Positions 20,900 to 58,229 of a stretch of 64,000 bases of DNA are shown here, piece after piece (positions within the stretch are counted from its first letter, which is position 1; each line of letters begins with the position of its first letter). A model generated the notes under the pieces. It did not search any database and was not told where the DNA came from. It saw nothing but the letters and a program-made list of their open reading frames with translations. The translations under genes were made by a program, and so were the position numbers. The stretch is from Rhizophagus irregularis (Eukaryota; Glomeromycota; Glomeromycetes; Glomerales; Glomeraceae): contig NC_089431.1 of assembly GCF_026210795.1 (NCBI RefSeq), positions 930,001 to 994,000 on the forward strand, written 5' to 3'.

Positions 20900-22493
20900 T
20901 TACGCAGTTTCATCAATTACGCAATCAAAACACTCCGAAACTGAAATTTAAATTAAAAAAAAGTTAAAAAATATACAATAATAGAGGATCTTTATATAAA
21001 TAAATTGAAAATTACCTAAATCATTTGAATTTACTGGCTCCGGAAGATTTTTGAAACTTAACAGTCTACTGGTATAGATTGCTTGAGGGTGAGTTTCTAT
21101 ATTTTTAGATATATTTTTAGATATATTTTCATTATTAAATCTTTTTATATATTTATGTCCTTTTATTTGGGAATAAAAATTTCCATTCATGTTTCTTATT
21201 TCATTTCTCCATTTTCTTAATTTATGGGATAATTCCTTAGCAGTTGGTCTATTTTCTGCTTTAGCATCCCAGCATTTAACGATCAAATCTGCGAGCGGTT
21301 TTGGAATATCTTCGGAGATATTTGGTCGAAGTCCTTTACATATCCCAACAGCTAACGTATGATCATGAGGAATATTACTATAAGGAGTTTCTTCAGACAT
21401 TAATTCATTCATCACTATTCCAAATGAATAAATATCAGCTGCTTTTGTATATTGGCATCCACGTAAAATTTCTGGTGACATATAAGGCAATACTCCATAA
21501 CCTCCTTCCTTGTCATTATTTGCTTGTCGGCACATTCCTAAATCACTTATATATGCATGTTTACGATTCATATTAAGTAATATATTTCCTATATGAAGGT
21601 CTCCATGAACTTTTTTAGCATCATGAATATTTTGAAGTCCTCTTGCTATATGAAATAAGTACTGAATTTTTAACTTTATATCCATATAATTTTCATTTAA
21701 ATAATTTCTTAAATTTCCACATTCACAATATTCTAAAACCATCATATACTCTTTAGAATTTGGATCTTGAGTTATTCCAAAATATTGAATAATATCCCAA
21801 GTATACATGTGAAGATAAGATTTGATCTAGTACAATATGACGTTGAAAAAATTAATATTTGCGTGAAAGATCAAGTAAATTATTTAATAAATTACCTCAT
21901 TTAACAAATCTAAATTCGTGTCGAAAGAATCATCCAAGCTTTTTAATGCAACTTTAACATTTTCACTTCTATAATATTCTTGGTTGTCAATATCCCAATA
22001 AATAATAAATCCTTTAGTCCATGTAGCTGAATAAACTTTACCAAACCCTCCTCTAGTAATATAAGTAATATCTTGTAAATCCTCATAAGTTATCCATTCA
22101 AGACATTTCTTACTACTTACAGCATTAAGTTGTGAATCTTGGATGAATTCATCAATATCTTTATTTCCACTAGTCCAATTTTTAAAATTTTCCTTAAATC
22201 TTTTGGCATTACAAGATTGACACCAAAGTTCTCCTGTGCCAGGTTCTTTACATTCCCAACATGTTCCATATATTTCTTCTCTTTTTTCCAAATCTTCTAT
22301 ATAAATTACTCTATCATCTGTCTTATTATATTCTTCTTCGGCAGTTGAATTAATATGAAAAATTGAAACATATTCCTTTTTTTTAAAAAAACAAATGATT
22401 AAAAATGATTAAAACTAAATATAAATAAATTGATTATTTACGATATAAAAATTCTACCTGATATTGAGCACTACCGCGTTTCCATGAATACAT
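20900..22493 (-). CDS. Rhizophagus-type protein kinase (kinase 1), TKL-like
   Basis: Four exons: 22493-22458, 22375-21896, 21826-21016 and 20940-20900, ~455 residues. Residues ~51-67 form a possible zinc ribbon, CWECKEPGTGELWCQSC, followed by NWTSGNKDIDEFIQ, the N-terminal block found in many Rhizophagus kinases. Kinase domain from ~120: ITRGGFGKVYSATW (Gly loop), VALKSLDD (beta-3 Lys), catalytic loop HGDLHIGN at ~246, SDLG at ~266 in place of DFG, SPE, and CWDAKAENRPTAKEL near the end. The Arg of HRD is Gly, but catalytic Asp, Asn and Lys are present, so it is probably active. The tail HPQAIYTSRLLSFKNLPEP and last exon VSECFDCVIDETA are shared with the array kinases. A paralogue of those at 52-64 kb, clearly more diverged. 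The minimal first exon is modelled by analogy. Confidence 0.85.
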
Positions 22494-35303: not shown

Positions 35304-35897
35304 TTATTCTTCCTCCTCTTGAATTTTTTGTTGTTTTTGTTCATCATATAGAGTATCTCCTCCCAACAAACCAATATTATGTAAAATATAAACTGCCATT
35401 TTGTAAACACTCCAAATAGAAACGGTAAAGAAAGTGGTCGAGATTGCTGAAAAGGTTAAAAAAAGTGCGACAGGAACAAAGAATAACAAACCAATCCCAA
35501 CGAAAAATCCTTCTGCCAACAAAATACCCATTCCACTGACAAATAAGACAAGAGTAAGAGTACCGATAAGAAAGGTGATTAAAATGGCTAAAGGAATAAC
35601 ATTTAAAACTGCTACACCATAACCAAACCAACTTAGAGGAGGAAAATTATTCCAAACATATCTAACCGACTTGATAATCGGTTTAGAATAATCACGTGGG
35701 TGTTGAAAAATTTCGCGTCCTTTATCCATTGCCGTTTCTAAAAGATTATATACCAATGATTCTTTTACGATTCCCCTTTGTGTGAAAGAGCGTTGAGAAA
35801 AATTATTTAGTGCTTCATTGACTTTATCTTCCCTTTCTTGAAAATCATCATAATAATATTTTTCATTATCATTAGAACATAACTGTTCTTCAGACAT
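35304..35897 (-). CDS. Promethin/LDAF1-like lipid-droplet membrane protein
   Basis: Single exon, 197 residues from MSEEQLCSNDNEKYY. An in-frame ATG 34 codons upstream adds a hydrophobic leader in AT-rich sequence and is judged to be UTR. Residues ~1-85 are polar. Residues ~85-175 are an almost continuous hydrophobic stretch (PLSWFGYGVAVLNVIPLAIL; LTLVLFVSGMGILLAEGFF; LLFFVPVALFLTFSAISTTF) that can form paired membrane hairpins. The tail is Gln/Glu-rich. This layout and the Gly-rich hairpin text match promethin (TMEM159/LDAF1) and the fungal Ldo/Osw5 relatives, which partner seipin in lipid-droplet formation. Similarity is judged by eye; another small hairpin-type ER protein is possible. Confidence 0.65.
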   Translation of the reverse strand: MSEEQLCSNDNEKYYYDDFQEREDKVNEALNNFSQRSFTQRGIVKESLVYNLLETAMDKGREIFQHPRDYSKPIIKSVRYVWNNFPPLSWFGYGVAVLNVIPLAILITFLIGTLTLVLFVSGMGILLAEGFFVGIGLLFFVPVALFLTFSAISTTFFTVSIWSVYKMAVYILHNIGLLGGDTLYDEQKQQKIQEEEE

Positions 35898-36323
35898 TGT
35901 GAACATGTAAAAGCAAAAAAGAGAAAATAGAAGGTTAAAAAAAATTTTTTTTCGCGATACTACTAAATTTATTAGATTTTTATCAATTATATAAATCAAA
36001 TTTTTTCATGCATCATATTAATGAACTATGACCAAATATTATTACAGAAATAATCTAATGAGTAATCATATAATCATTTAATTAATCAATTAATCAATCA
36101 ATCAATACAAGTTTCTGAGCAAATTTATCGAATCTCACTATTAGACATAAAAATTGTGCTGCGACAAAAATAATTTTTGTGCTACTGGCGAGGTATCACA
36201 TGATTAAACAATTTTTGTGACGCGAGGACGCGAGGTATCACATGATTAATAAAGTATTTAAATAAGCCACTCGATGGTCATTATTAAAATAATAATAATA
36301 ATAGTTTTACATTGACTTCAATT
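35898..36323. promoter_or_regulatory. Divergent promoter region with a 20-bp direct repeat
   Basis: About 430 bases between two divergent genes. GCGAGGTATCACATGATTAA occurs at 36188-36207 and again at 36230-36249, 42 bases apart, ~75-135 bases upstream of the F-box ATG. Between and before the copies, ATTTTTGTG also repeats. A/TCACATGAT could be a transcription-factor site; function is inferred. Confidence 0.45.
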
Positions 36324-40389: not shown

Positions 40390-41625
40390 ATGGGAAACGG
40401 TAAGTCAAAAATTAAAAAACAAACAAAACTTACGACAGAGGTTAAGCCTCAAATAATAAATGAAGTAAAAGAAGATAAAGAACTGAAATATTATTTACCA
40501 AATAATTATACGGACGTTGATAGACAACACAATAATACATTTGTAAAAAAAGAAGTTTTTCAAGGTAGTTTTTCTGCTTCTATTGAAGAGAGATTAAATA
40601 GAGGAGAATGTAAAGTATTAGATGTATGGTAAGTAAAAAGTGGTAAGTAAAGAAAATTATATGATATTTTTTAAAATAATTTTATTAATAATATATATTT
40701 TTATACCATATTCTTTAGTTGTGGTCCTGGAACATGGTTATTAGACCTAGCAGCCAAACACGAGAAATCCTCTTTTTTTGGAGTGGATATTAAGCCAATA
40801 TTTCCAACGGAGGTAAATTACTTTTAAAGGGATATTAAATTTATATAATACATTATAATACATTAATTAATACTTTTGCTAATATTTTTTTTTTTTTTAG
40901 ATAAAACCATCAAATTTAAATTTTATTCAAGCAGATGTATCGAATGGATTACCATTTCCTGATAACGAATTTGATTTTGTGAATCAGGAAACAATGTTAT
41001 TTATTTGGACGATAGATCAATGGGATTTTATCCTATCTGAGCTCGTTAGGTATTTATAATTTATATATGTATATATAAAATTTTTCTTTTATATCAATTT
41101 TAAATATTTGTTTTATAGAGTAACATGCCCAGGTGGATATATTCAAATATGCGAGCAAAATTTTTCTGTATATAAAGGCATAGGTCCAGTTTTTTATAAA
41201 ATTCTTGAAGATGGACGTAAGTATTATTCGGTCCTTTCTTAAAAAAAAAAAACTTGATAATAGAATTCTCTCATTCATACTGTATGTTTTTAGATTACGC
41301 CTCTGGTTTAAAGCGAAATGTAGATATAAAAATAACACCTCGTCTTAAGGAAAAACTTGGATCCCAGCAAAATATTACAACGGTTCATGAAGAAGAAAGA
41401 CAAGTTGTTCTTGGTCCAAATGGTGGTAAAATTGGATTAGCATTACAAGACATTTATTTAAGTTATATGTCAACTAATATAGCAATTGAAACAATGAGTG
41501 TTCTTTTAGGAATGTCAAAGGAAGAATATAGAAATCATTTAAATTATGATCTTATAAATGAATTTAAAGAAACTAATACTTTTCATATAGTAAATAGATA
41601 TTGGGCTCAAAAGAATGTAAATTAA
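40390..41625 (+). CDS. SAM-dependent methyltransferase 1, putatively N-myristoylated
   Basis: Five exons: 40390-40628, 40719-40812, 40901-41049, 41119-41216 and 41294-41625, ~303 residues. It begins MGNGKSKIKKQTK: Gly2 and Ser6 fit the N-myristoylation consensus, followed by a lysine cluster as in Src-type membrane anchors. Class I methyltransferase fold: motif I spans the first intron as VLDVC+CGPGTWLLDLAA, then FFGVDIK (acidic loop), NFIQADVSNGLPFPDNEFDF and RVTCPGGYIQI. Unlike its paralogues (IGCGPG), the first Gly of motif I is Cys, which may weaken SAM binding. A family-specific block VVLGPNGGKIGLALQDIYLS lies near residue 230, and the C-terminus is NRYWAQKNVN. Substrate unknown. First of three paralogues. 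Confidence 0.88.
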
Positions 41626-42575
41626 AAGTGTCTTCTTATTAAAAATATATTAATGTACTTATTTATTATACAGTTATTATTGTACTACTTTATTACCCTT
41701 AATATTAATAGAATTTGAATAATTTAATATAATTTTTTTGATTTTTTTTTTCCACTATAATTTCATTGTGAGTTGTGACATATGCGATTACAGTACGATT
41801 TTCTGAATGGTATTTCCCGAATATAATTTAATTACCTGAATGCCAATTTTCCGAACTGGACATTTTCCTGAATTTGCATAAATTACAGTTTTTAAATTTT
41901 GTTAAACAATAATTATAATAACTTTATTAAAATTTATACAAAAATGCATTCAGAAAAGAAACGCGGAATAGAATGAGCAATTATCATTCAACTAGATTAC
42001 TAGAAATGTCTCACTTTATAAAATTTGGGAAGAAACATCAAATATATACAGTAAGTGAATCTTGAACCGAGATTATCATTAACGTAGTGGTACGGTAATT
42101 TCATGCGGTAATCACTTTGGGATGGCGTTTTTGTTTTTGTATTATGAAACGCTGTTATTTGATTTTCACGTGATCATTTGTCAAAGTGATACTTAGTAAT
42201 TGCTGTTACGTTTAACTTAAAAATTCCCCTGATTATTAGCGTAACCACTTCTTTTAATAAAATAAAATAAAAAAAAAAAAACTGAATTTCTACGTGTTTT
42301 AATAATGGCGTGATTTTAAAATCTTAATTTTTTTTCGGTCTCCCTATGAAAAAGGAATTTCAGAATTTGTCTGGAATTTGCCCTCGTTGTCTGAATAATA
42401 ATGTCTGGATAATGACCGGAATCTTTCACATTTCGGTACATTATTCTTCATCTATAATATACTTTACAATCCTCAATATTTATTTGGGTTATAAGAAATT
42501 TTTTTCTTTTTTTCAGAATGTAGCAATAGGAATACAATAAAAATTTTAATTTTCTTTCATAAATCAAGGTATAAA

Positions 42576-42720
42576 TAAAGACCCGGACGTCCGGAATCAT
42601 TCATATTTCGGTTCATTGTCCGGATGTCCGGAATTATTCATACTTCGGTTACATTATCCAGACGTCCGGAACCATGGTACATTTTCCGGAACGTTCCAGA
42701 CATTCTCGCTGGACATCTTT
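42576..42720. repeat. Tandem TCCGGA repeat, ~45-bp period
   Basis: Three diverged units with GACGTCCGGAATCATTCATA, then TTTCGGTTCATTGTCCGGAT and GTCCGGAATTATTCATACTT, the last ending CCAGACGTCCGGAACCATGG. A variant follows, TTCCGGAACGTTCCAGACA. Each unit carries palindromic GACGTC/TCCGGA words, unlike the AT-rich surroundings. The same TCCGGACA word is prominent in the element at 51.3-51.7 kb, so this may derive from a relative of it. Confidence 0.65.
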
Positions 42721-42766
42721 TTTTTTTTTTGTAGGGACTAGGGATCTTATAAAATAAAAAAGTGGA

Positions 42767-42802
42767 ATTATAAACATTATAAACATTATAAACATTATAA
42801 TG
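42767..42802. repeat. 9-bp microsatellite (ATTATAAAC)
   Basis: Three perfect copies of ATTATAAAC and a fourth ending ATG. Confidence 0.85.
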
Positions 42803-44689
42803 TTTTCGTTAATCCATACTTTTTTAAATAATCATAGAGTTATTCGGTTTTCAGACATGTGATCAAAATTTTTAAATCATGTGATTGGAAACTCGTGTAA
42901 ACCAATCAAAATAGTTTATTTATACAGAACCATTTGAGCCAATCATTCGAATTTTTTGAATTTTTTACCAAATTAATATTAGCTTAAAAATTTCCTTTTT
43001 AGATAAAAAAAGAATTTGTTTTGAAAATGATAAAATAATACGTAATATTAGTATTTTGGTAAAAATAAACAACATTTGTATAAACAACTTGAAAATATTT
43101 AAAGCATCCAATAAAAATCATTCAAATTAATCATACAAAAAAAAAAAAATTTCGTAATGAACCTAAAAAGAATGATCTAGACAAAACTTTCATCTAAATT
43201 TTATTTTTATTGGTGAAGATTTACAATCTTTTTGATTTATAAAGAGAAGAAGAGAAAGATTATTTTTTTGAAAGTTATTGTGAAAACCGATTCGTTCTTT
43301 TTTTTTTTGATATCATGACCATAAAGAAAGTAACTGGTACCTTATCAATGTTACCAATAATATATCATAATATTTAAAGAATGGTACCAGAAAGTAATAA
43401 AGTAATATAATTCGTTCTTTCTCACATAGTAATGACTAAAATAACTAAAGAAAAAGTGAAAATTTTACATAAAAACTCAACATATTGCATATTTCCGATA
43501 TACAGTATTTATAATATTACGGGATTTCCTTTTTTCTTCACAAAAAAATTATTTTCTGTAGCAGTTCAAAAAAAATGAAGCTAAAAAAGGGAAAAATAAT
43601 AAAGTATACAAAGAATTTTAATCTTTTTGCGCGTTTTTACACAAATGTTTTTTACATACCAGATACTGTAAATGTTATTTTCGCATATACATACGTTATA
43701 CTGTTGATATACATGATCATGTTTTTTTTTTAAGTGTGCATAAAAAACTAAAAAATCCCTTATTGTATTAACAAGGGTTATACATATTTTTTTTTTCTTT
43801 ATTATGACAAAAGTATATTTTTGTAATGTTTTTTTGTCTGCATGTAATCTAAAAATTTAGAATTTACCAATAAATAGAGTTTTAAAAACTGTCCTATTAA
43901 GGAGAATATTTGAATTGTGAGACAATTGAGACATTGCTTTTTTTTTAATGTATAAATATATATACAACATAGTTAAAACAACGATATATGCAGGGTCCCT
44001 CGAAAAATAACGTGGAATCGAGGGAATTTGATTGGATGAATTTTTCTCGTGTAACAATATAAATAAAGGAAACTGTAAACAAAGTGTTACTAATAGTCAA
44101 AAGATTCAATATTCCGAATTTCCCGATTATTATTATTTTTTTTTTTAAAAAAAAACTTCTAAAGGTGCAAATCCTTTCACCTGACTCTTCTTATGCATTA
44201 ATGAGTAAAATTTACATGTAAAATTTTTAAGGGATGATATTCATTCCCTTACTTTTTTTTTTAAAAAAAAAATAAAATAAAATAAAATAAAATAAAATAA
44301 ATATTAATATTTTAAATAATTTTTCATCGAATTTTCAATAACTGGAATTAAGAAATACCGATAAATAAAAAATAATTTTAAATTAAACTAATTTTATATT
44401 TGAATATGCAAAAATTTCTCATTTGAGGTTCATATAAATTGACATTGCATTTTGATCCCTGCATATTTATCTGGAAAAAAAACAATAAGCAAATATAGTA
44501 AAATTAAAAATTTTTTTTTTTTTCAAGAATAATTTTTCTATTCCGGGTTTGTAATGAACATGTTACAGTTGTTACACGACTTTTTTTTATTATTTTGGTC
44601 GTAAAATATTTGTTTTGAATAAACACATAAATAATGTTTTTTTTCTTAAGTCTGTTCAACGAAAATGATGTAATCAAAAATAAAAAACG

Positions 44690-44805
44690 TATCAAAAGCA
44701 TCAAAAGTCATCAAACAACATAACATCAAAAAAAAAAAAAAAGTATCAAAAAGTATCAAATGTCATCAAATGTTATCAAACGTACAAAAAAGTATCAAAT
44801 GTATG
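44690..44805. repeat. Imperfect TATCAAA/TCATCAAA repeat
   Basis: Words GTATCAAAAG, GCATCAAAAG, TCATCAAAC, AGTATCAAAAAGTATCAAAT and TGTTATCAAACGTAC recur for ~115 bases, broken by a poly(A) run. Non-coding simple repeat. Confidence 0.65.
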
Positions 44806-45717
44806 AATTTATGCTAAAGAAAGAAAAAAGGCTTTTATTTATTAAATTATACGTACATAATTTTTTATATATAAAAAAAAACTGTAGTTAACATTTTGTG
44901 GCTGCATTTTTTTCATATTATACCTTTTTAATACCTTTTGTTTTTTAATAAAGTACAAAAAGGAAAAACGTTATGTTTTTGTTATTTTTGAAATTTTAAT
45001 AATATTTATTAAAAATAAGTTTTAGTTCTTACTATAAGTCGTACAAAAGTTAATAATTTTTTTTATTAAAATTAGTAAAATTTAATAAGTTTCAAGTTTA
45101 GTTTTATTTTTTTATTATTTTTTTTATTTTATTTTATTTTTTTTTTGTTTTTATTTTTTTTTTTTAAAATTTTTTTTTCCTTGTTCTCTTTCGTAACTTC
45201 TAAAGATACATGAGATGAGATAATCATCAATCCTATTATTTATTTATAAAAGTAAGCCTCTATTTTTTTTAAAAAAAAGATTGCACGTCAACTGTTGTAA
45301 TAAAAAAGATTTGGAAAAGATCTGCATATTTTTATTTAGTTTAAACATTCCACATGGAAATACGATAAATTAAACAGATAACTTAATAAATTACAACTGA
45401 AACAATGCTTTTTTACAACATGATCAAACAAAATTGGTAAATTAATTATGTCGTGAATATTGATTGCGTATTTATTTATTATTTACAAACCTTAAAAATC
45501 GTACTATTAAGACTTTTACTATTAACTTGATAATTTGATAATGTCATATATTTTAAAATAACGATTTAAAAGTAAAACTTTTTTTTCTTTTTTTTTTTTA
45601 CTTCATATTTCAAAGATTTTTATTTTTTTTAAAAAAAAAATAAAAATAAAAATAACACTCAAATAAAGATCATTTTTAAAGATCTTTTATTTCATTCTTT
45701 TTTTTGTAAAAAAAAAA

Positions 45718-46968
45718 ATGGGAAATAACAAATCAAAAGTTAAAAGAACATTATCAAATTCTTCCAAAAAACATCACCAAAACTCACAATACTTATTATC
45801 AAAAGAATCCGAATCACGGAATTTAGATAAAGAAAAGGAGTTGACATATTACTTATCGAATCATAATGATGAAGATATTGATAGACAACATTTTAATCAT
45901 TTTTTTAGAAAACATATATTTCAAAATAATTTTTCTGTTCCAATAGAAGAAGGATTAATCCAAGGAGGATGTAAAGTATTAGACATCGGGTAAGTAACTA
46001 GTTTGATTTCTTGAATAATGAATATTTTTTAAATGATCTATAAATTAGATGCGGTCCTGGATCGTGGTTATTAGATCTAGCAAGTAAATACGAGAATTCT
46101 TATTTCTTTGGAATTGATATAAAACCAGTATATCCGAATGAGGTAAATATTAAAGTGAACGCTGGATAAAAATGTATATCGTATCGTATAATAAATATGT
46201 ACATTTTTTATATATATAGATAAAACCGAAAAATTTAGAATTCTGCGAAGCCGATATGTTTAATGGATTGCCATTTCCCGATAATGAATTCGATTTTGTG
46301 CATCAAGAAGTAATGTCATTCATAATAAAAGCAGATCAGTGGAATTATGTGATTTCCGAACTTATTAGGTATTGTATAATGTATAATGTATAATGATGCC
46401 TTTATTATTATTTACAGTATACCGACCTAAAAAACTTTTTTTTTTTACAGGGTGACGAAACCAGGAGGATTTATTGAAATTGTTGAATATATTTCACCCG
46501 AAAATAGTGGTCCAGTATTAACTAATGTGTATAAAACACGTAAGTAATAAATAAAATATATATGTATAATAAAGATTTTAATTTTTATATAATATATATA
46601 TAATTAATATATATGTTATATATGTTATATATTATTTAGATTTTGATTTATGCCTTCAACGAGGCGTGGATATGAGTTTGATACCTAATCTTGATAAAAT
46701 AATTGAATCACATCAAAATATATCACAAGTTCATAGAGATGAACGTTCATTTATAATAGGACCAAATGGGGGTAAAGCTGGTTTAGTCATTCAAGATATT
46801 ATAATAACATTTAATACTTCTGACCTTGCAACTGATGATATTTCTTCTAAAAAAGGAATTTCTAAAGAAGAATATAAAAATATGATTTTAAGAGATTTTA
46901 AGAATGAATTAAAAATTACTAAACCCAAATTAAAAGTTTGTAGATTTTGGGCCCAAAAAAATGCCTAA
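45718..46968 (+). CDS. SAM-dependent methyltransferase 2, putatively N-myristoylated
   Basis: Five exons at the same positions and phases as the other two: 45718-45989, 46049-46142, 46220-46368, 46451-46539 and 46640-46968, ~310 residues. The N-terminus MGNNKSKVKRTLSNSSKKHH has Gly2, Ser6 and a basic stretch and is a little longer than in the paralogues. Motif I joins as VLDIG+CGPGSWLLDLAS with intact Gly, then YFFGIDIKPVYPNE, DMFNGLPFPDNEFDFVHQ and RVTKPGGFIEIVE. The block FIIGPNGGKAGLVIQDIIIT matches the family. It ends CRFWAQKNA. The ATG follows a poly(A) run directly. Substrate unknown; the tandem setting suggests duplication and divergence. Confidence 0.9.
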
Positions 46969-48269
46969 AAAAAAAATAACATATATACATATATAAAAGT
47001 ACATATTTAAAAAATATTTATATTAAAAAATTTTATTGTATTAAATAAAAAGAGATTTTGTACGAACGAATTATATTTGTATTTAAAAAGAGATTTGTAA
47101 GAATAAATTAGAATAATTATTATTATAAATTATAAATAAATAATATAATAAATTATTTTTTTTTCGGGGTTCTTATTTCCGATTAAAACAAAATTCAAAC
47201 CGTCTTTTTCTTTTTTGGTAACAAGAATTATATTTTATGGGATTCTTAAATCCGATTGAAAATTCGAACCATTTTCGGCTTTCGGCTTTTATATAATTAC
47301 ATCGCGTATCACATGAAGTATTGTAACTGTAAACATTCCTTTTACATTGTTGCCCGAATAAATTTAAATCGGAATTACAAAATTAATTAAGGCGCATAAT
47401 AAAACCGATTAAATTAGGTTTGTTATACCTCCGAAATAATTTATTATATAAAACTGTTTGAAAATAATGTTGTGAAAGTTAATTTCCAAATTTGGTCGTA
47501 TTAAAATAATAATGAGTAATTTTCATTACATACAGTATTTTTACATTTCGTGAATGATCTTGATCGAAAATATTAAAAGAAAAATAATTATACTATCATT
47601 ATATAATAATCTTTTTACTTGAATAATTTTGATTGAAACATTTAAAAATAATTGATAAAAACAAATTGATAAAAACTAATAAGGAAAAGTAAAACTGTAC
47701 GTTGTAAATCCCACATACTACCACAAAATATATTAAAATCCTCTTTCTGTTTTTTTTTTCCTTTATTATTATATAAACAAATTCCTTTTTTTACTATAAA
47801 TAAATATATATATATATATATTCAATATTATTTATATTTTTTATAAATTATTTTCTAATTTAGATTCCTTCTTTATATTTCACTATTTTCATTCCTTTTT
47901 AATAATTATCATATAATTGTCATTATTTTCTACAATATTCGCTCATTAATTGACAAAACCCTCCTTTTTATACGTCATTTATCCCTTAATTTAATCTTTT
48001 CTCCCGTCGTTCTTTTTCTTTAACATTCTTTTCCCCCTCCTTTATAACTCATTACCCCCCTTGTAATACGTCAACTTCCTTCCTACTTTCTTTTATTATT
48101 CGTATTTTCTTGCCACTTCAGGCGGAAAATTTATAATGAGTTTAAATTCCAAATTCTTTTAATAAATAGAACACATTTTTTAAAATCACAATTTCGTTGA
48201 GAAATCTTTTATTTAATAATATATTTTTTTTTTCTTGTATATCGTATTATTATTTTATAATAAATAAAT
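46969..48269. other. Gene-free interval between methyltransferases 2 and 3
   Basis: AT-rich with a (TA)n run near 47800-47820 and a C-rich pyrimidine patch at 48000-48110 (TTCTCCCGTCG, CCCCCTCC, ACCCCCC). No gene seen. Confidence 0.5.
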
Positions 48270-49496
48270 ATGGGAAATAATAATTCGACTTTTAAACGTA
48301 AAAATAAAAAAATAGTATTAGATAAAAATGAAACTATGGACTTGGAAGTAGGAAAGGATTTAAAATATTATTTACCGAATAATTATGAAGATATTGATAG
48401 GATTCATATGTTTCATTTTTTTCAAAGATATATATATCAAGGTAATTTTTCTTCTCCGATTGAAGAAAGATTAATGCAAGAAAAATGTAAAGTATTAGAT
48501 ATTGGGTAAGTTAAAATAAATAAATTAATTAATTAACTTTTTTTAAAAGCATTTTTTTTTTTTTTTTTGAGAATTAAATTTTTTTAAATAAAGATGCGGA
48601 CCCGGAACTTGGTTGTTGGATCTTGCAAATAAATATGAAAAATCTTTATTTCATGGGCTTGATAATAATTCAATATTTCCAAATGAGGTTAGTAACGTGA
48701 CAATTAATAAAATAGTAATTAGGTAATTAGGTAATTAGGTATAATAATTAATATATATATATATATAAATTTAATTAGATAAAACCGTCAAACTTAAATT
48801 TTATGAAAGCGGATATGTTTGATGGATTACCGTTCCCTGATAATGAATTTGATTTTGTACATCAGGGTACAATGGCGTTCATTATTAAAGCAGATCAATG
48901 GACCTTTATCATTTCTGAAATGATTAGGTATAACTTTATTATAAATATGTAAATAATTTAAAAAATGGATATTTATTTATTTATTTATTATAGAGTAACA
49001 AAACCTGGTGGATTTGTTGAGATTCATGAACCATATTGTATATCTAAAGGATTTGGTCCAATTTTAAATAAAATAAATGAAGCGCGTAAGTAAATTAATT
49101 ATTTCTTCATATTTATCAACTATTTATTATTAAGGAATGACTAAGATCTATTTTTTAAAAATTATAGACATTTCATCTTGTTTACAAAGAGGAGTAGATA
49201 TGAAATTATTACCAAATCTTGATAAAATAATTAAATCAAATCCAAATACGCCAATAACTTATAAAGATGAAAAATTCTATATTTTAGGACCTAATGGTGG
49301 TAAGATTGGTATGGTTAATCAAGATATTTTTATAGGTTTTCATGATAATGATGTGGCGATGGAAAATTTAAGTCCAGTATTAGGTATTTCTAAAGAAGAA
49401 TATAAAATTATGATGACAAAAGATCTTATAGAAGAACTTAAATATACTAGTCCAGAATATTCATTAATTAGATTTTGGGCTAAAAAAATTAATTAA
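48270..49496 (+). CDS. SAM-dependent methyltransferase 3, putatively N-myristoylated
   Basis: Five exons: 48270-48505, 48594-48687, 48779-48927, 48994-49085 and 49168-49496, ~299 residues. The start MGNNNSTFKRKNKKIVLD keeps Gly2 and Ser6 and a basic cluster. Motif I is VLDIG+CGPGTWLLDLAN; then LFHGLDNNSIFPNE, in which the Asp of the acidic loop is kept but DIKP is DNNS. Further motifs are DMFDGLPFPDNEFDFVHQ, RVTKPGGFVEIHEP and FYILGPNGGKIGMVNQDIFI. It ends IRFWAKKIN. The second intron has a GTTAGT donor; the second exon follows an AAAG acceptor, a little weak but fixed by frame and homology. Confidence 0.9.
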
Positions 49497-52208
49497 AAAT
49501 TAATTAATAACTGATTAATAATATTATTATAGTATTTTTATAGTATTTTATATTTTTTATATTAGTTTATAAGTTATTATTATTTTATGATATAGTATAA
49601 ATAGAGTATAACAATTATTTTATATATACTTATATTTATACAACTTTTTATATATGAAAAATTTATTTAATTTAGTAGCTTAATTAAATATTTATTTGGT
49701 AATATATATATATATATATATATTAATTTTTAATAAATAGGCGCTAATTACCAAATAAAAATTATTGAAGCATACTGTTAATAATGTTTGTATAATAATA
49801 ATACAAAAAAACAGCACAGTAATGAAGTACTAATTTTTACGTTATTTTGACTCGACATTTTCGTATCTTGTTTTTCCGCTTCAATTTTTTTTCCGAATAA
49901 TTTATTTGTATTTTCTAAAAAAAAAAACAAATCAACAATTAACAATTAATCCGTTCGTTTCATAATCATAGCAAGTTGCACTATTTTATCAGCGTTACTG
50001 GTGATGGACCGATCTAAACTCGGTTAGGATTAGTTGTAAATAATATTGTATATGTTTTTCACATGATATGAAACGAGTTTAATCATTTTTAGTTAAGGTC
50101 AGAAACACCATTTGTCCATTGTCCATCTGATTCAGCAATCACTTCTCTATAATTCGTTAAATTTTTAATGATATTCGGGATTTTTTCGGTCGCGATTGCG
50201 TGCGTCCACTAGTATTACTCTGTCGGAATAGATACCGAAAACTCTAAAGTGATTTCACTTTATGTAAAATCGTTAATTATCATTCTCTTATTCTTCATAA
50301 CTACAGTAAAGGTAATCCGTAGTAATCTTCCCGTTTGTTTAAACTTAATATTATGGTGACTTGAATAAGTTAATAAAAGGGTATGATGGTCGTTCTTTCT
50401 GCAATTACATTTAATGTTGTCATAATAGAGTATTTATAATAATAACTTTTAGATTTAAGTGAAGATACTACTTTATAAAACCTATGAAATTCAATATAAG
50501 AGCGAACGTGATCCCATTTTCATTTCGGATTCTTTAAAAAGTACGTTTATCGTTAGCGTTAAGTATAATCATGTGATAGAATGGTATGATAGTTGATTCA
50601 TTTCTTTTAATATTAAAAATCCGATTAATTAATAAATAATGTTATGGAAATACTAGTATTTCAGTTATTATCGGTTTACCATGATTTCATTGATTAAATT
50701 GTTACTTGTTTCAATAGATGTAATGTTTTTTAGAAAAAAATCTCGAATCTCAAGAACCTTCATCATGATAGTATTATATAAAATGACAATACGATATTTC
50801 TATTATACAAACTTTTTAAGTATTATATATTATATCTTATTCCAAGTTAGAAGATTGAATTTATTACTAATAAAAATATTTTTTATTTATTAAATTAACG
50901 CTCGTTTATATCCTACAGTATAATAATTAGTTTTTTTTCGTTTCGATTAAAATTAATTTTTTCATTTAAAATTAAATAGTAACTATACGTTTATATAAAA
51001 AAAAATATATAACAACCAGCAAAACATTCTTGCTTTTCGATCCGATAGTTTGTGAATAGCATGATCTATATATATATAATTCAATACTTTATTTTCGTCA
51101 ATATCTAATTAATTGGTGCAGGAGAAACCGAATTTTGATCAATTTATTATTTTTTGTCCTTTAAGATTGTGAATACTATAAGATATTCTATTAAACTTAC
51201 TGTACTATTGGAAAAAAATAAAAAGAAAATTTTAAGATGATATAAATGAGTACGATTGCAGTTTATGTTTCATGAAAGAAAATATACGTTTTTTTTAACC
51301 TCTGTTTCAAAAATAATTTTAGATGGATCAATTATTGCGGTTTTCAGAAATGTTGGCATTGATAGATTTTCAATATATTGTATATTTTGTGTTTTTGTGT
51401 TTTTCCGGACATTTTTGATGACAATTTCCGGACAATTTCCAGATATTTTCTGGACAAAAAAAAAAACAAACAAAATATAATTTTTTTCCGGACATTTTCG
51501 ATGACAATTTCTGGACATTGCCTGGACATTTTCCAGATATTTTCCGGATATTTTACAGACAAAATATTGTATTTATGTTTTGTATTTTGTGTTCTTTTTT
51601 GTCCGGAAAATATCTGGAAAATGTCCAGAAATTGTCACCAAAAATGTCCGGAAAAACACAAAAACACAAATATACAATATATTATTGAAAATCTATCAAT
51701 GCCAACATTTCTGAAAACCGCAATAAAGTCTTAGACAACTTAAAGAGAAAAAAAATTTTTATTTAAAAATTTATTCAAATAAAAAAATTAAAAAAGTGAA
51801 TCACTTTAAATATAAAAATAAAAATAATAACAAATATAAAATTATTTGTTTGTTTGCTGCTAATTTTAAATTTTTTCTTAAAGCTTGATATACAAATAAA
51901 TTTTTCATCATCATCGTATCAGAATGCTATTTTGCTAAGCATTTTCGATTTCTAACGTTTCTACCGGTTTGTGATCAAAGTTGAGCGTCTCTTTTTAATT
52001 TTTTAACACGTCCCCCAATAAATAATATAATTTCTAATATATATATATATTTTTTTCGTTTATTTGATCCTGACATAAGAAATTTCCGTTAAGATATAGT
52101 ACTAAATAAATAAAATATATACTAAGTTAATAAAAATTTTTTAAATACTAACTTTTAAATTTATTAAATAATATTCTGACTATTTCCAAAAAAAAAACTT
52201 ACTATAAT
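49497..52208. other. Intergenic flank of tandem unit A
   Basis: From ~49990 on this is the shared flank of the kinase repeat unit (compare 54540-56440). It carries the miniature element at 51335-51723. Short frames here are not conserved between units and are not genes. Confidence 0.6.
51335..51723. mobile_element. TA-flanked MITE (Tc1/mariner/pogo-like tips), 389 bp
   Basis: The long inverted repeat (arms ~120 bp or more) begins TTGCGGTTTTCAGAAATGTT and ends with its reverse complement AACATTTCTGAAAACCGCAA. It is flanked by TA on both sides (51333-51334 and 51724-51725). Unit B of the array has the uninterrupted sequence ATGGATCAATTAAAGTCTTA (55821-55840), where a single TA replaces the whole element: a paralogous empty site. 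The inside repeats TCCGGACATTTT and CAGATATTTTC. No transposase. Spurious frames on both strands come from this palindrome. Confidence 0.9.
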
Positions 52209-54090
52209 TTAAGACTCATCATTCAAATCATCATCTTCTTGATTAATTTCGTTGAGATCTATTATTAAAATAATTAATAAATAAAATTAGACGAATAAAA
52301 TAATAAATTACTTCAAATAAATTATTTTACCTAATTCACTAAATTGAACGTCAAAGCATTCTGAAACTATAAATTAAACAATAATATAATTGTTAGAATA
52401 AAATATAAATTTATAATTAATATTAATAATAGTTATACTTACTTATATTTGCTGATACTGATGGAACATCATCTGTTATTAAAAAAAAAATTTGATATCG
52501 TTAAAACTTGAATAAGATTTTTTCATAATTAAAAATTAAAAATTTACCCGAATTAATTTGAAATGATGATAAATCTGATGAATTTACTGGTTCTGGAAGA
52601 TTTTTGAAATTTAACAGTCTACTTGTATAGATTGCTTGAGGATGAGTTTTAATACTTTCAGATTTATTTTCATTTGAACTGTTTTTCAATTTTTTTTCTC
52701 TAGTTTTTGTATAATATTCCCTCATTTGAAAATAAATTTCATTATCACATGTTGTTTCTTTCCATTTATTTAATATTTGATACAATTCTTTAGCAGATGG
52801 TCTATTTTCTGCTTTAGCATCCCAACATTTCGTAATTAAATCTACAAGAAATTTTGGAATATTTTCAAAAATTTTTGGTCTTAGTCCTTTACATATTTTA
52901 ACAGCTAAAATATGATCATGAGGAATATCATTAAAAGGAATTTCTTCAGAAAGGTACTCATTCATAATTATTCCAAATGAATAAATATCAGATGCTTTTG
53001 TATATTGATATCCACGTAAAACTTCTGGTGCCATATAAGGTAATACTCCATAAACTCCTTCTTTTTTATCTGATTTCTCTTTATTATTTACTGGTTGACA
53101 CATTCCTAAATCGCTTATATATAGAGTATCTAATATGTTACCTGAATGAAAATCTTTATGAACTTTTTCAGCATTATGGATGCTTAACAGTCCATTTGCA
53201 ATTCTTGATAAATTATAAAGTTTTATAGTGTCAGAAGAACTATTTAAATAGTAATTTCTTAAATTTCCATTTCCACAATAAAATAAGACCATCATATAAT
53301 CTTTGGTATTTGGATCCTGTGTTATTCCATAGCAGTAAACAATATTCCGAATATAAATCTGAAGATAAGATTTGATCTAATAATTAATATTTTAAAAAAA
53401 AAGTTTAATAAAATTACAATGACAATTTTATATAACGCACAATAAATTAATTTTTTTTTATTTAATTACCTCATTTATAAAGTCAGTACAAATTTCAGAA
53501 GAATTATCCAAACTTTTTAATGCAACTTTACAATTTATGTTTCTTTCCCATTTTTGATTTTCAATATCCCAATGCCAAATATATCCTTCAGGCCATTCAG
53601 CTGAATAAATTTTACTAAAGCCTCCTCTGGTAATATAAGTAACATTTTGTAAATTCTCAAAAGGTATCCATTCAAGGCATTTAAGATAATATACAGCATT
53701 AAGTTGTGAATATTGTATTAATTCATCAATATCTTTATTTCCACTAGTCCAATTTTTAAAATTTTCTTCAAATCTTTTTGCATTACAAGGTTGACACCAA
53801 TTTTCTCCTGTACCAGGTTCATTACATTCTCCACATATGCCATATGCTTCTTTTCTTTTTTCTATTTCATCCATATAGATTACTTTATCATCAATCTCTT
53901 CTGATTTGGTAGCTGAATCAATAGTAGAAATTGTAACATGAACCTAAATAAGTAATAAAAATATATTTGTTAATTAAATCATATTATTTATACATAGTAA
54001 ATTATAATTTGAAACTGCATTTACATGATATTTTTTCGAATCAACTCCTTTCCATAAATTTCTTGGCTTTTCTTTATTCAAAATTTCCAT
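52209..54090 (-). CDS. Rhizophagus-type protein kinase (kinase 2, unit A), intact
   Basis: Six exons: 54090-54025, 53943-53470, 53376-52548, 52472-52443, 52366-52331 and 52258-52209, ~494 residues. Residues ~59-75 carry the Cys block CGECNEPGTGENWCQPC, then NWTSGNKDIDELIQ. Kinase domain: ITRGGFSKIYSAEW (the third Gly of GxGxxG is Ser), VALKSLDN, YGITQDPNTKDYMMVL, catalytic loop HKDFHSGN at ~253, SDLGMC, PYMAPEVLRGYQ, CWDAKAENRPSAKEL. The tail HPQAIYTSRLLNFKNLPEP continues over three small exons to DLNEINQEDDDLNDES. TKL-like signalling kinase, substrate unknown. Small 3' exons are supported by the equivalent sequence in the other units. Confidence 0.88.
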
Positions 54091-56447
54091 ACTAGTATTT
54101 CTTGGCTTTTTTTGAATATCTTTTTTAACGTGTTTACTACAGTAATTTTAGTTATATGTATAGTACTGTTATTTACTTTATAATAAATGAAAATTTTTAA
54201 AACAAATTTAGTGAACGTAATGTTGTTTTATTAACAGAGCTTAGGCTGCTCAGCTAAATATATACAAAAATATGCATCATGCACATCTGAGCAATACCAA
54301 TCAGAATCAACAATTTTGTCAGCCACACATTTTTATCCTAATCGAATCATTTTAGATAATTTTGTATTATGATTATGGCTAAGATTTTTTTTATACAATT
54401 TAAAAATTGAAGAATATATGGCAACTGGTATTATATCCTTAATTACATAAATTTTATTAGTAGATAATTCAATATTAAAAGTTTAATGTGTACTAACCAA
54501 TATTTATAATTATAAAGTAACTTTTTGTGCTGTCGGTACATAATTTTTAATGGATCTAAACTAGGTTAGTATTGGGTAATAAATAATATTATATACTTTT
54601 CACATGATAAGAGTTTAATCATTTTTAGTTAAGGTCAGAAACACCATGATTGTCCATTGTCCATCTGATTCAGCAATCACTTCTCTATAATTCGTTAAAT
54701 TTTCAATGATATTCGGAATTTTTTCGGTCGCGATTGCATGCGTCCACTATTACTCTATCGGAATAGATACCGAAAACTCTAAAGTGATTTCACTTTATGT
54801 AAAATCGTTAATTATCATTCTCTTATTCTTCATAACTACAGTAAAGATAATCCGTAGTAATCTTCCCGTTTGTTTAAACTTAATATTATGGTGACTTGAA
54901 TAAGTTAATAAAAGTGTATGATGATCGTTCTTTTGCTCTGCAATTACATTGTATTTATAATAATCATTTTTAGATTTAAGTGAATATACTACTTTATTAT
55001 AAAACCTAGTATGAAATTCAATGTACTAGTAAGAGCGAGCCGATTCTTTAAAAAGTACGTTATCGTTTAATAACGTTAAGTATAATCATGTGATAGAATG
55101 GTATGATAGTTGATTAATATTAAAAATCCGATTAATTAATAACTGAAATAATATTATATTATGGAAATAGTATTTATTATCGGTTTACCATGATTACATA
55201 GTAGATTAAATTGTTACTTGTTTCAATAGATGTAATGTTTCTAGAAAAAATTCTTTCAATGTCTCGAATCTCAAGTACCTTCATCATGATATTATATAAA
55301 ATGACCAGTACATTATTTCTATTATACAAATTTTTTAAAGTATTATATATATATCTTATTCCAAGTTGGAAGATTGAATTTATTATTATTATAAAAGTAT
55401 TTTTATTTTGTTAAATTAACGCTTCGTTTATATCATACAGTAATAATAAATAGTTTTTTTTTAGTTTCGATTATAATTAATTTTTCATTTAAAATTAAAT
55501 AGTAACGTTTATATAAAAAAAAATATAACAACCAGCAAAACATTCTTGCTTTTTGATCCGATAGTTGTGAATAGCATGACCTATATATATATATAATTCA
55601 ATACTTTATTTCGTCAATAAACTAATCAATTGTTGCAGGAGAAACCGAATTTTGATTAATTTATTATTCTATTAAACTTACTTTAATGTTAAAAAGAAAT
55701 AAAAAGAAAATTTTAAGATGATATAAATGAACTAATATTTTTCAGGGAATACGATTACAGTTTCAGTATCATGAAAGAGAATATACTTTTTTTTAACCTC
55801 TGTTTCAAAAACAATTTTAGATGGATCAATTAAAGTCTTAGATAACTTAAAGAGAAAAAAAAAATATTTTATTTAAAAATTTATTCAGATAAAAAACTAA
55901 TATGTATAAATGAATCACTTTAAATATATAAAATAAAAATAATAACAAATTTAAAATTTTTTGTTTGTTTGCTGCTAATTTTAAATTTTTCTTAATGCTT
56001 TATATACAAGTAAAATTTTTATCATCATCGCTATTTTGCTAAACATTTTCGATTTCTAACGTTTTTAACGTTTTGTAATCAAAGTTGAGCGTCTCTTTTA
56101 ATTTTTTAACACGTCCCCAATAAATAATATAATTTCTAATATATATATTTTTTTTCGTTTATTTGATCCTGACATAAAAAATTTCCGTTATTAAGATAGT
56201 TAAGATATAATACTAAAGTAAATAAAATATAAGTTAAGTTTAAAATAAAAATTTTTAAATACTAACTTTTAAATTTATTAAATAATATTCTGACTATTCC
56301 CAAAAAAAACTTACTATAATTTAAGACTCATCATTCAAATTATCTTCTTGATTAATTTCGTTGAGGTCTATTATTAAAATAATTAAATAAAATTAAACGA
56401 ATAAAATAATAAATTACTTATTCAAATAAATTATTTTACCTGATTCA
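54091..56447. other. Flank of tandem unit B
   Basis: 54091-54530 is the upstream region of kinase 2; from ~54540 the unit flank is repeated and reaches the 3' end of kinase 3. No gene of its own. It provides the empty site (55831) for the element in unit A. Confidence 0.6.
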
Positions 56448-58229
56448 CTAAATTTTACAATCAAAACATTCCGAAACTATAAATTAAACAATAACATACT
56501 AATGTTAGAATAAAATATAAATTTATAATTAATAATTAATATTAATAATGGTTATACTTACTTAGATTTTCTGATATTGATGGGACATCTATTATTAAAA
56601 AAAAAATTTGATATTGTTAAAAATTGAATAAGATTTTCATCATTAAAATTAAAAATTTACCCGAATTAACTTGAAATGATGATAAATCTGATGAATTTAC
56701 TGGTTCTGGAAGATTTTTGAAATTTAACAGTCTACTTGTATATATTGCTTGAGGATGAGTTATAATACTTTCAGACTTATTTTCAATTGATATATTTTTA
56801 AATTTTTTTTCTTTAATTTTTTCATATTCTCCCATTTGAGAACGAATTTCATTATTATTGAATTTCTTATCTTCTTCATGCCAATTTTTTAATATTTGAT
56901 ACAATTCTTTAGCAGATAGTCTATTTTCTGCTTTAGCATCCCAACATTTCATAATTAAATCTACAAGAAATTTTGGAATATCTTCAGAAATTTTTGGTCT
57001 TAGTCCTTTACATATTTTAATAGCTAAAATATGATCATGAGGAATATCATTAAAAGGAATTTCTTCAGAAAGAAACTCATTCATAATTATTCCAAATGAA
57101 TAAATATCAGCTGCTTTTGTATATTGATATCCACGTAAAACTTCTGGTGCCATATAAGGTAATACTCCATAAACTCCTTCTTTTTTATCTGATTTCTCTT
57201 TATTATTTACTTGTTGACACATTCCTAAATCGCTTATGTATACAGTATTTAATATATTTCCTGAATGAAAGTCTTTATGAACTTTTTCAGCATTATGGAT
57301 ACTTAACAGTCCATTTGCAATTTTTGATAATCTATAAAGTTTATTAATACTACTAGAATTATTTAAATAGAAATTTCTTAAATTTCCATTTTCACAATAT
57401 TTTAAAACCATCATATAATCCTTGGTATTTGGATCTTGTGTTATTCCATAGCAATAAACAATATTCCGAATATAAATCTGAAGATAAGTTTTGATCTAAT
57501 AATTAATATTTTTTTTTTAAAAAAAAAAAGTTTAATAAAATTATAATGACAATTTGTATATATCGCACAATAAATTAATTTTTTTTTTATTTAATTACCT
57601 CATTTATAAAGTCAGTACAAATTTCGGAAGAATTATCCAAACTTTTTAATGCAACTTTACAGTTTTTGACTCTTTCCCATTTTTGATTTTCAATATCCCA
57701 ATACCAAATATATCCTTCAGGCCATTCAGCTGAATAAATTTTACCAAAGCCTCCTCTGGTAATATAAGTAACATTTTGTAAATTCTCAAAAGGTATCCAT
57801 TCAAAGCATTTAAGAAAATATACAGCATTAAGTTGTGAGTATTGTATTAATTCATTAATATCTTTATTTCCACTAGTCCAATTTTTAAAATTTTCTTCAA
57901 ATCTTTTTGCATTACAAGGTTGACACTAATAATCTCCTGTGCCAGGTTCATTACATTTTCCACATATACCATATACTTCTTTTCTTTTTTCTATTTCATC
58001 CATATAGATTACTTTATCATCAATCTCTTCTGATTTGGTAGCTGAATCAATAGTAGAAATTGTAACATGAACCTAAATAATAAGTAGTCAAATATATTTG
58101 TTAATTAAATCATATTATTTATCATAATAAATTACAAATTGAAATTGTATTTACATGATATTTATTCGAATCAACTATTTTCCATAAATTTCTTGGCTTT
58201 TCTTTGGATATCTTTTTTAACGATTCCAT
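56448..58229 (-). pseudogene. Kinase 3 (unit B) with an in-frame stop in the Cys block
   Basis: Same structure as kinase 2: exons 58229-58155, 58072-57599, 57495-56661, 56588-56562 and 56476-56448. The codon for the conserved Trp of the Cys block is TAG at 57928-57926 (codon ~74), directly before CQPC. Apart from this the reading frame is open: Gly loop ITRGGFGKIYSAEW, VALKSLDN, HKDFHSGN, SDLGMC, PYMAPEVL and CWDAKAENRLSAKEL (R-P changed to R-L) remain. The penultimate exon has one extra base relative to kinase 2 and ends early, ISECFDCKI. It is probably a young pseudogene; a shorter kinase starting after the stop is possible. Confidence 0.8.

What the first reader, a model, noticed from the sequence alone, without database searches (positions are those of the whole stretch)
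40390..49496. Three tandem methyltransferases with N-myristoylation and polybasic starts
Seen: all three proteins begin MGNxxS followed by lysine-rich text, and share exon positions, motif I, and a block (I/L)GPNGGKxG(L/M)xxQDI I cannot tie to a known subfamily. Known: Gly2 and Ser6 with downstream basic residues are the membrane-targeting signal of N-myristoyltransferase substrates. Inference: a small family of membrane-tethered SAM methyltransferases, acting on lipids or membrane proteins. The N-terminal anchor is the best conserved part of otherwise variable first exons, which argues for selection. This is the best candidate for an undescribed system here.
Basis: partly seen in the sequence, partly recalled or inferred. 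Interest (0 to 1): 0.72.

Follow-up and report, generated by a model that had tools for sequence, protein, structure and literature searches.

The report
Lipid-anchored fungal methyltransferase gene family
Three neighbouring fungal genes encode methyl-transferring enzymes that start with a signal for attaching a fatty acid and sticking to membranes, and the same start recurs in most of about ninety related gene copies examined in this genome, so the cell may keep a large set of such enzymes at its membranes; what they methylate is unknown.

Summary
Three same-strand genes (40390-41625, 45718-46968, 48270-49496) have five exons with identical intron phases, a class I SAM-methyltransferase domain (Pfam Methyltransf_25), and MGN-x-x-S at the first in-frame ATG. 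They are not a small family. I examined 90 loci (3 in the window, 87 fetched from the same genome, on 22 of 32 contigs). By a fixed rule (5'-most in-frame ATG), 54 of 90 start MGxxx[ST]. Controls: 8 of 575 internal Mets, 0 of 174 mechanical ORFs nearby. Where Gly2 is present, residue 6 is Ser/Thr in 54 of 58 and residues 7-20 are basic (mean net charge +3.6). Where Gly2 is absent, the basic patch is mostly absent too (2 of 24 reach +3). One N-myristoyltransferase locus is present. The 'GPNGGKxG' block is the clade's version of a superfamily block (P-I-G-x-W-G-G-x-L-G-E). Best reading: methyltransferases tethered to membranes by myristate plus basic residues, resembling a fungal LaeA-like type, with the tether built in rather than supplied by an adaptor as in VapA-VipC-VapB. 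Myristoylation, location and substrate are inferred, not shown. No fungal homologue outside this genome could be tested.

The parts
40390..41625 (+). MT1 gene, coding exons 40390-40628, 40719-40812, 40901-41049, 41119-41216, 41294-41625 (303 aa)
   Evidence: spliced model; Methyltransf_25 E 1.2e-14
40390..40422 (+). MT1 N-terminal anchor signal MGNGKSKIKKQ (Gly2, Ser6, basic 7-10)
41410..41436 (+). MT1 block LGPNGGKIG (exon 5)
   Evidence: aligned with the superfamily block
45718..46968 (+). MT2 gene, coding exons 45718-45989, 46049-46142, 46220-46368, 46451-46539, 46640-46968 (310 aa)
   Evidence: spliced model; exon boundaries recovered by a spliced alignment to MT3; Methyltransf_25 E 1.4e-16
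45718..45747 (+). MT2 N-terminal anchor signal MGNNKSKVKR
46756..46782 (+). MT2 block IGPNGGKAG (exon 5)
48270..49496 (+). MT3 gene, coding exons 48270-48505, 48594-48687, 48779-48927, 48994-49085, 49168-49496 (299 aa)
   Evidence: spliced model; Methyltransf_25 E 6.6e-15
48270..48308 (+). MT3 N-terminal anchor signal MGNNNSTFKRKNK
49284..49310 (+). MT3 block LGPNGGKIG (exon 5)

Best explanation
The three genes are members of a large fungal superfamily of class I SAM-dependent methyltransferases, many of whose enzymes are tethered to membranes by a built-in two-part anchor. SHOWN: first in-frame ATG followed by Gly2, Ser/Thr6 and a basic stretch; a class I methyltransferase domain; the same start in most examined relatives in this genome, across deep divergences; joint presence and absence of Gly2 and the basic patch; an N-myristoyltransferase locus in the genome. 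INFERRED: the initiator Met is removed; NMT attaches myristate to Gly2; lysines and arginines at 7-20 hold the protein on acidic membrane surfaces, and a few members add cysteines (MGNCFCK, MGCVCVK, MGTCASK) that could be palmitoylated; a fast-evolving linker carries the catalytic domain, which methylates a partner at or near the membrane. MOST LIKELY ROLE (inferred, about 0.4): protein-directed regulatory methylation, as proposed for the membrane-held VipC-VapB pair of Aspergillus, rather than bulk lipid or small-molecule methylation (about 0.35); the rest is undecided.
For: Gene models and first ATG. Domain. Fixed-rule count: MGxxx[ST] in 21 of 27 core and 33 of 63 wider loci; controls 8 of 575 internal Mets and 0 of 174 other mechanical ORFs. 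Among 58 Gly2 starts: Ser/Thr6 in 54 (no other position from 3 to 16 exceeds 17 of 58), Lys/Arg7 in 31, no Asp/Glu at 3-6, mean net charge of residues 7-20 +3.64; among 24 non-Gly2 starts: Ser/Thr6 in 6, mean charge -0.08. Charge of at least +3: 46 of 58 with Gly2, 2 of 24 without, Fisher p 2e-9. Retention across a tree whose end branches have a median of 0.59 changes per column. Position-specific purifying pattern at 2, 3, 6, 9 and 11 in 25 close paralog pairs. NMT domain (PF01233) exons at one locus, C31:1755332-1755866. Precedents: PRMT8 is held at the plasma membrane by N-terminal myristoylation plus basic residues (passages of PMC8621972); VapA tethers the methyltransferases VipC-VapB to the plasma membrane (passages of PMC4299510).
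Against: No lipidation, localisation or expression data. Codons 2-7 as a block are not more constrained than the linker (pN/pS 1.44 against 0.52; 1.75 without one unanchored pair). The phylogeny-aware test of Gly2 with charge rests on only 4 independent pairs on supported branches (sign test median p 0.125); paralogs are not independent, so the Fisher values overstate. 22 of 63 wider loci start otherwise by the rule, and 4 more have Gly2 without Ser/Thr6, so the anchor is not a defining feature of the superfamily. 11 of 58 Gly2 starts fail the strict PROSITE myristoylation pattern (pattern recalled; 8 of the 11 because of Lys, His or Phe at position 3), though the three window proteins fit it. 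MT1's motif I has Cys for the first Gly. The substrate is unknown.
Confidence: 0.75

Rival explanations
1. The shared MGNxxS is only inherited similarity among recent tandem copies and has no function; the enzymes are ordinary soluble methyltransferases.
For: The three window genes are close paralogs (51% identity to MT1) in a 274-kb cluster; codons 2-7 as a block show no lowered pN/pS.
Against: The same start recurs in 33 of 63 wider loci, most of whose end branches on the domain tree are 0.5-1.4 changes per column long, while positions 4, 5, 7, 8 and 10 change freely in close paralogs. Ser/Thr at 6 and the basic patch depend on Gly2. An unselected start would not be expected to keep residues 2, 6, 9 and 11.
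Confidence: 0.1
2. Membrane-tethered enzymes of lipid or small-molecule metabolism (for example phospholipid, sterol or quinone methylation), the anchor placing them next to a hydrophobic substrate.
For: The best solved-structure profile hit of the window proteins is a phosphomethylethanolamine N-methyltransferase (5wp5, E 4.4e-9, query positions 20-179), and UbiE and fatty-acid methyltransferase models are among the NCBIfam hits.
Against: The hits mostly cover the generic Rossmann part, and the NCBIfam equivalogs listed for MT1 lie far below their cut-offs (37 bits or less against 155 or more). About 90 diverging copies with variable linkers do not look like housekeeping lipid metabolism (inference).
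Confidence: 0.3
3. The true start lies in an unseen upstream exon, and the MGN is internal.
For: No transcript data were available; some wider relatives have introns in the N-terminal linker.
Against: In-frame stops lie 3, 17 and 2 codons upstream of the window starts with no ATG between, and A is at -3 in all three genes. The MG start is kept in relatives whose upstream readings differ (bracketed readings).
Confidence: 0.04

Closest known systems
VapA-VipC-VapB methyltransferase complex, with LaeA and LaeA-like (Llm) methyltransferases of Aspergillus nidulans
   Same: Fungal SAM-dependent methyltransferases, several per genome, with two members held at the plasma membrane until a signal releases them to the nucleus (passages of PMC4299510; nine LaeA-like genes, passages of PMC3547832).
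   Different: There the tether is a separate FYVE zinc-finger protein (VapA); here a myristoyl-polybasic signal is encoded in the enzyme itself. Homology to LaeA, VipC or VapB was not tested, because no such sequence was at hand; the review also says that the four Aspergillus enzymes resemble each other only around the SAM-binding part (PMC4299510). Here there are about 90 loci.
PRMT8 (vertebrate N-myristoylated protein arginine methyltransferase)
   Same: Works alike: a SAM methyltransferase held at the plasma membrane by N-terminal myristoylation combined with basic residues in the first 20 amino acids (passages of PMC8621972).
   Different: Different family: no arginine-methyltransferase model is among the matches shown here; PRMT8 is a single protein with expression restricted to neurons.
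Methyltransf_25 / Methyltransf_11 class I methyltransferases (Pfam)
   Same: All three proteins score above the curated cut-offs.
   Different: Generic fold models; they give neither substrate nor subfamily, and do not cover the N-terminal anchor, the ...LPN..D.DR.. block or the C-terminal GPNGGKxG region (match ranges).

Membership tests
Class I SAM-dependent methyltransferases (Methyltransf_25) | Profile match above the curated cut-off | tested here: met
   55.2, 61.4 and 56.0 bits against a cut-off of 27
Class I SAM-dependent methyltransferases (Methyltransf_25) | Glycine-rich motif I and acidic residue after strand 2 | tested here: met
   MT2 VLDIGCGPG...GID and MT3 VLDIGCGPG...GLD; MT1 VLDVCCGPG...GVD, with Cys for the first Gly
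N-myristoyltransferase substrates | Gly right after the initiator Met | tested here: met
   MT1, MT2 and MT3; 58 of 90 examined loci by the 5'-most-ATG rule
N-myristoyltransferase substrates | Small residue, best Ser/Thr, at position 6; basic residues following | tested here: met
   Ser6 in all three; Ser/Thr6 in 54 of 58 Gly2 starts; charge of at least +3 in 46 of 58. The strict PROSITE pattern (recalled) fits 47 of 58, the three window proteins among them
N-myristoyltransferase substrates | An NMT enzyme in the organism | tested here: met
   PF01233 exons at C31:1755332-1755866
N-myristoyltransferase substrates | Myristate found on Gly2 | not testable with these tools
   needs labelling or mass spectrometry
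LaeA-like (Llm, VipC, VapB) methyltransferases | Sequence homology to LaeA beyond the generic SAM domain | not tested
   no LaeA, VipC or VapB sequence was at hand; the resemblance of the WGG block to LaeA-type proteins is recalled, not tested
LaeA-like (Llm, VipC, VapB) methyltransferases | Membrane tether through a VapA-type FYVE adaptor and release to the nucleus | not testable with these tools
   needs localisation and interaction data
Protein arginine methyltransferases (PRMT8-like) | Match to arginine-methyltransferase models | tested here: not met
   none among the Pfam matches to E 0.01, nor among the NCBIfam families shown (20 for member 1; 25 of 36 over all three members)

The most novel reading that the evidence does not exclude
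This fungus has turned a LaeA-type regulatory methyltransferase into a large, birth-and-death family of self-anchoring membrane enzymes. Several dozen methyltransferases carry their own myristoyl-polybasic (in places also cysteine) anchor in place of an adaptor such as VapA, forming a surface methylation system in an arbuscular mycorrhizal-type fungus. Members lose the anchor from time to time, Gly2 and basic patch together, and could thereby change compartment.
Probability: 0.3. Interest if true: 0.72.

Novelty: new variant of a known kind. Interest (0 to 1): 0.5.

Why it matters
Myristoylated methyltransferases are rare in what I know (PRMT8 is the standard case; recalled). A genome with several dozen candidates of one superfamily would be the largest such set I know of. 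It would make a clear question testable: whether an arbuscular mycorrhizal-type fungus uses membrane-placed protein methylation in signalling. It also gives a simple sequence handle (MGxxxS plus a basic patch, lost and kept together) for sorting an expanded family into membrane-bound and free members.

Tried and rejected
Rejected: 'small family of three'; 'GPNGGKxG is an orphan motif'; 'no function, mere shared descent'; PRMT-like identity.

Led nowhere: AlphaFold2 on exon 5 alone with the three window sequences gave mean pLDDT 42.9, so no fold search was run. The full spliced proteins were not handed to the structure tool, because its rule admits only letter-for-letter translations of the DNA. 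The whole-genome ATGGG pattern count (1182 forward and 1160 reverse, against 677 and 721 for the reversed pattern) was not interpreted. The region-averaged pN/pS test went against the idea that the anchor block is the most constrained. Of 8 other methyltransferase loci taken as controls, 4 had no ATG upstream of the match in the open frame and the other 4 did not start MG, which is a weak control. The 174 control ORFs are mechanical and mostly not genes.

The start rule was run twice. The first landmark (the NFSSP-like block) failed in 7 of 90 loci and gave MGxxx[ST] in 52 of 90; the second (motif I) failed in 5 and gave 54 of 90 (both counted). The counts given are those.

Dropped rows: L012, L022, L023, L028 and L229 (apparently damaged or fragmentary) were left out of the tree but kept in the denominators. 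L011 and L033 (second ATG is MGxxxS) and L243 (MGKIHSK, not placed) were labelled as bearing the signal in the tree only; by the rule L011 and L033 count as non-Gly2. L219 (MGCVCVK) was labelled as not bearing it. L005 was left out of the pooled and per-position figures, and the pair L223-L227 of the per-position figures. At least 14 further matched places were not fetched (C3 fragments near 0.24, 0.52, 0.54, 0.59, 0.65, 1.24 and 1.29 Mb; C27:2851619; C5:3930325; C20:3632954; C25:987841; C31:1875747; C7:5015519; C14:4351846), and one search did not list all its 178 matches.

Passages from term searches only were seen of PMC4299510, PMC8621972, PMC3547832, PMC10234402 and PMC6123716; of PMC6007072 the term search found no passage.
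Full report
WHAT IS THERE. The window lies at C3:930001-994000 of a 146.7-Mb, 32-contig genome. That size and number would suit Rhizophagus irregularis; this is recall, not a test. Three genes on the plus strand, 4.1 and 1.3 kb apart, were spliced by hand: MT1 40390-41625, MT2 45718-46968, MT3 48270-49496; 303, 310 and 299 aa; five exons each; intron phases 2, 0, 2, 1 at homologous places. A protein-to-DNA spliced alignment recovered the MT2 exon boundaries from MT3. Each start is the first in-frame ATG after an in-frame stop (3, 17 and 2 codons upstream), with A at -3. MT2 and MT3 are each 51% identical to MT1. Pfam calls all three Methyltransf_25 above the cut-off. NCBIfam equivalogs match MT1 only weakly, 37 bits or less against cut-offs of 155 or more. 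The best solved-structure match is a phosphomethylethanolamine N-methyltransferase (5wp5, query positions 20-179).

HOW LARGE THE FAMILY IS. Exon-5 and exon-1 searches of the own genome gave 39 and 66 matches, and a hand-written consensus of the wider block gave 178 exon-level matches. I fetched 87 loci and, with the three window genes, examined 90 on 22 of 32 contigs; at least 14 matched places were not fetched. The closest set ('core', 27 loci as I drew it) has 22 members within C3:970390-1244111, among them apparently damaged copies (L012, L022, L023, L028; stops or missing exons), so the cluster seems to grow and decay by local duplication. On an 85-row tree of the domain the 23 core rows kept lie on one side of a branch, but with support of only 63.

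THE ANCHOR. Rule: take the 5'-most in-frame ATG of the open frame that holds the part 25 residues before motif I. Result: core, MGxxx[ST] 21 of 27, other 2, no Met 1, not placed 3; wider, MGxxx[ST] 33 of 63, MG only 4, other 22, no Met 2, not placed 2. An earlier landmark gave 52 of 90 in place of 54 of 90. Outside the rule, L011 and L033 have the signal at their second ATG, and L243 starts MGKIHSK and L219 MGCVCVK. Controls: among 575 internal Mets of the same proteins 32 are followed by Gly and 8 also have Ser/Thr four places further on; of 174 other mechanical ORFs of at least 40 aa in the same loci 1 begins MG and none MGxxx[ST]. Conditioning on Gly2 alone (58 starts), Ser/Thr fills position 6 in 54, while at the other positions from 3 to 16 it fills 2 to 17; Lys/Arg fills position 7 in 31; mean net charge of residues 7-20 is +3.64, and of residues 31-44 -1.02. 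The 24 starts without Gly2 have Ser/Thr6 in 6 and mean charge -0.08. A charge of +3 or more is found in 46 of 58 with Gly2 and 2 of 24 without (the two are L038 and L234). These tests treat paralogs as independent. The tree-aware version finds only 4 independent pairs on supported branches, on average 3.6 in the expected direction and 0.0 against (median p 0.125), so it agrees but lacks power. Gly2 needs at least 14 changes on the tree, against a mean of 20.9 for shuffled labels (minimum 17 of 100).

SELECTION, FOR AND AGAINST. In 25 pairs of close paralogs, nonsynonymous changes summed over pairs are 0 at positions 2, 3 and 6, 3 at position 9 (12 synonymous) and 1 at position 11 (5 synonymous), but 14-20.5 at positions 4, 5, 7, 8, 10 and 12. 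That is the spacing expected of an NMT signal followed by lysines. The pairs overlap in rows and are not independent. Domain dN/dS in pairs runs from 0.15 to 0.84, which is purifying but relaxed in some pairs. L005, which lacks the MG start, also has a degraded motif I (VLDARSGTG).

THE UNASSIGNED BLOCK. In an alignment of 85 domains the core consensus I-G-P-N-G-G-K-I-G-L-x-x-Q-D-I aligns with the consensus of the 62 other rows, P-i-G-x-W-G-G-x-l-G-e (small letters: a third to a half of rows). It is therefore the clade's form of a superfamily feature in the C-terminal part of the domain. Its likeness to LaeA-type proteins is recalled; no LaeA sequence could be compared.

HOW IT LIKELY WORKS. 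One NMT locus was found (C31). The simplest reading is co-translational myristoylation of Gly2 and electrostatic binding by the basic patch; a few members have cysteines near Gly2 (L036 MGNCFCKPK and L213 MGTCASK; L219 MGCVCVK) that could be palmitoylated. This is the same two-part logic as PRMT8 (passages of PMC8621972). A fungal precedent for holding methyltransferases at the membrane until a signal comes is VapA-VipC-VapB (passages of PMC4299510); there an adaptor does the tethering, here the enzyme would do it itself. That the substrate is a protein in signalling is my preferred guess, not a result.

NOVELTY. Searches for N-myristoylation with Rhizophagus (one paper, on oil palm), myristoylated with methyltransferase and Mucoromycota (none), and Rhizophagus irregularis with S-adenosyl-L-methionine-dependent methyltransferase (two papers, on bean drought genes and maize heat stress, listing only) found nothing on this. 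Three genome papers of the genus do not hold the word methyltransferase in the main text (term searches: PMC10234402, PMC6007072, PMC6123716; the last names tyrosine-kinase-type motifs as the commonest among inflated genes). Subscription papers and supplements were not seen, so large methyltransferase families may be on record elsewhere. I file it as a new variant of a known kind: known fold, known lipidation signal, new combination and scale.

Noticed in passing
window 50030-58205: Tandem duplication of a kinase gene with its flanks (pieces 72-98% identical, start-to-start spacing 4.1-4.5 kb; PK_Tyr_Ser-Thr domain in the first copy). Copy spacing drops from about 4.5 to 4.1 kb across 51250-51750.
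   Followed up: partly
window 51332-51726: About 395-bp foldback element (inverted arms) present in the first kinase copy and absent from the second; the edges read TA|TTGCGGTTTTC...GAAAACCGCAA|TA, so probably a Tc1/mariner-type MITE with a TA target site.
   Followed up: partly
window 35304-35999 (-): ORF with a Promethin (lipid-droplet assembly factor) match just above the cut-off (29.9 bits, cut-off 27).
   Followed up: no
window 10201-11163 (-): Molybdate transporter of the MFS_MOT1 family (130.7 bits).
   Followed up: no
window 20948-21808 (-): Another protein kinase ORF (137.3 bits), not part of the tandem pair.
   Followed up: no
L005 (G000:C3:1242200-1244350): Core paralog that lacks the MG start and also has a degraded motif I (VLDARSGTG), perhaps a decaying copy.
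   Followed up: no
L040, L223, L227: Wider members that appear to have lost the anchor: L040 starts MERNLSK, which looks like MGxxxSK with Gly2 changed to Glu; sister loci L223 and L227 start MYRHLK and MCISRK.
   Followed up: no
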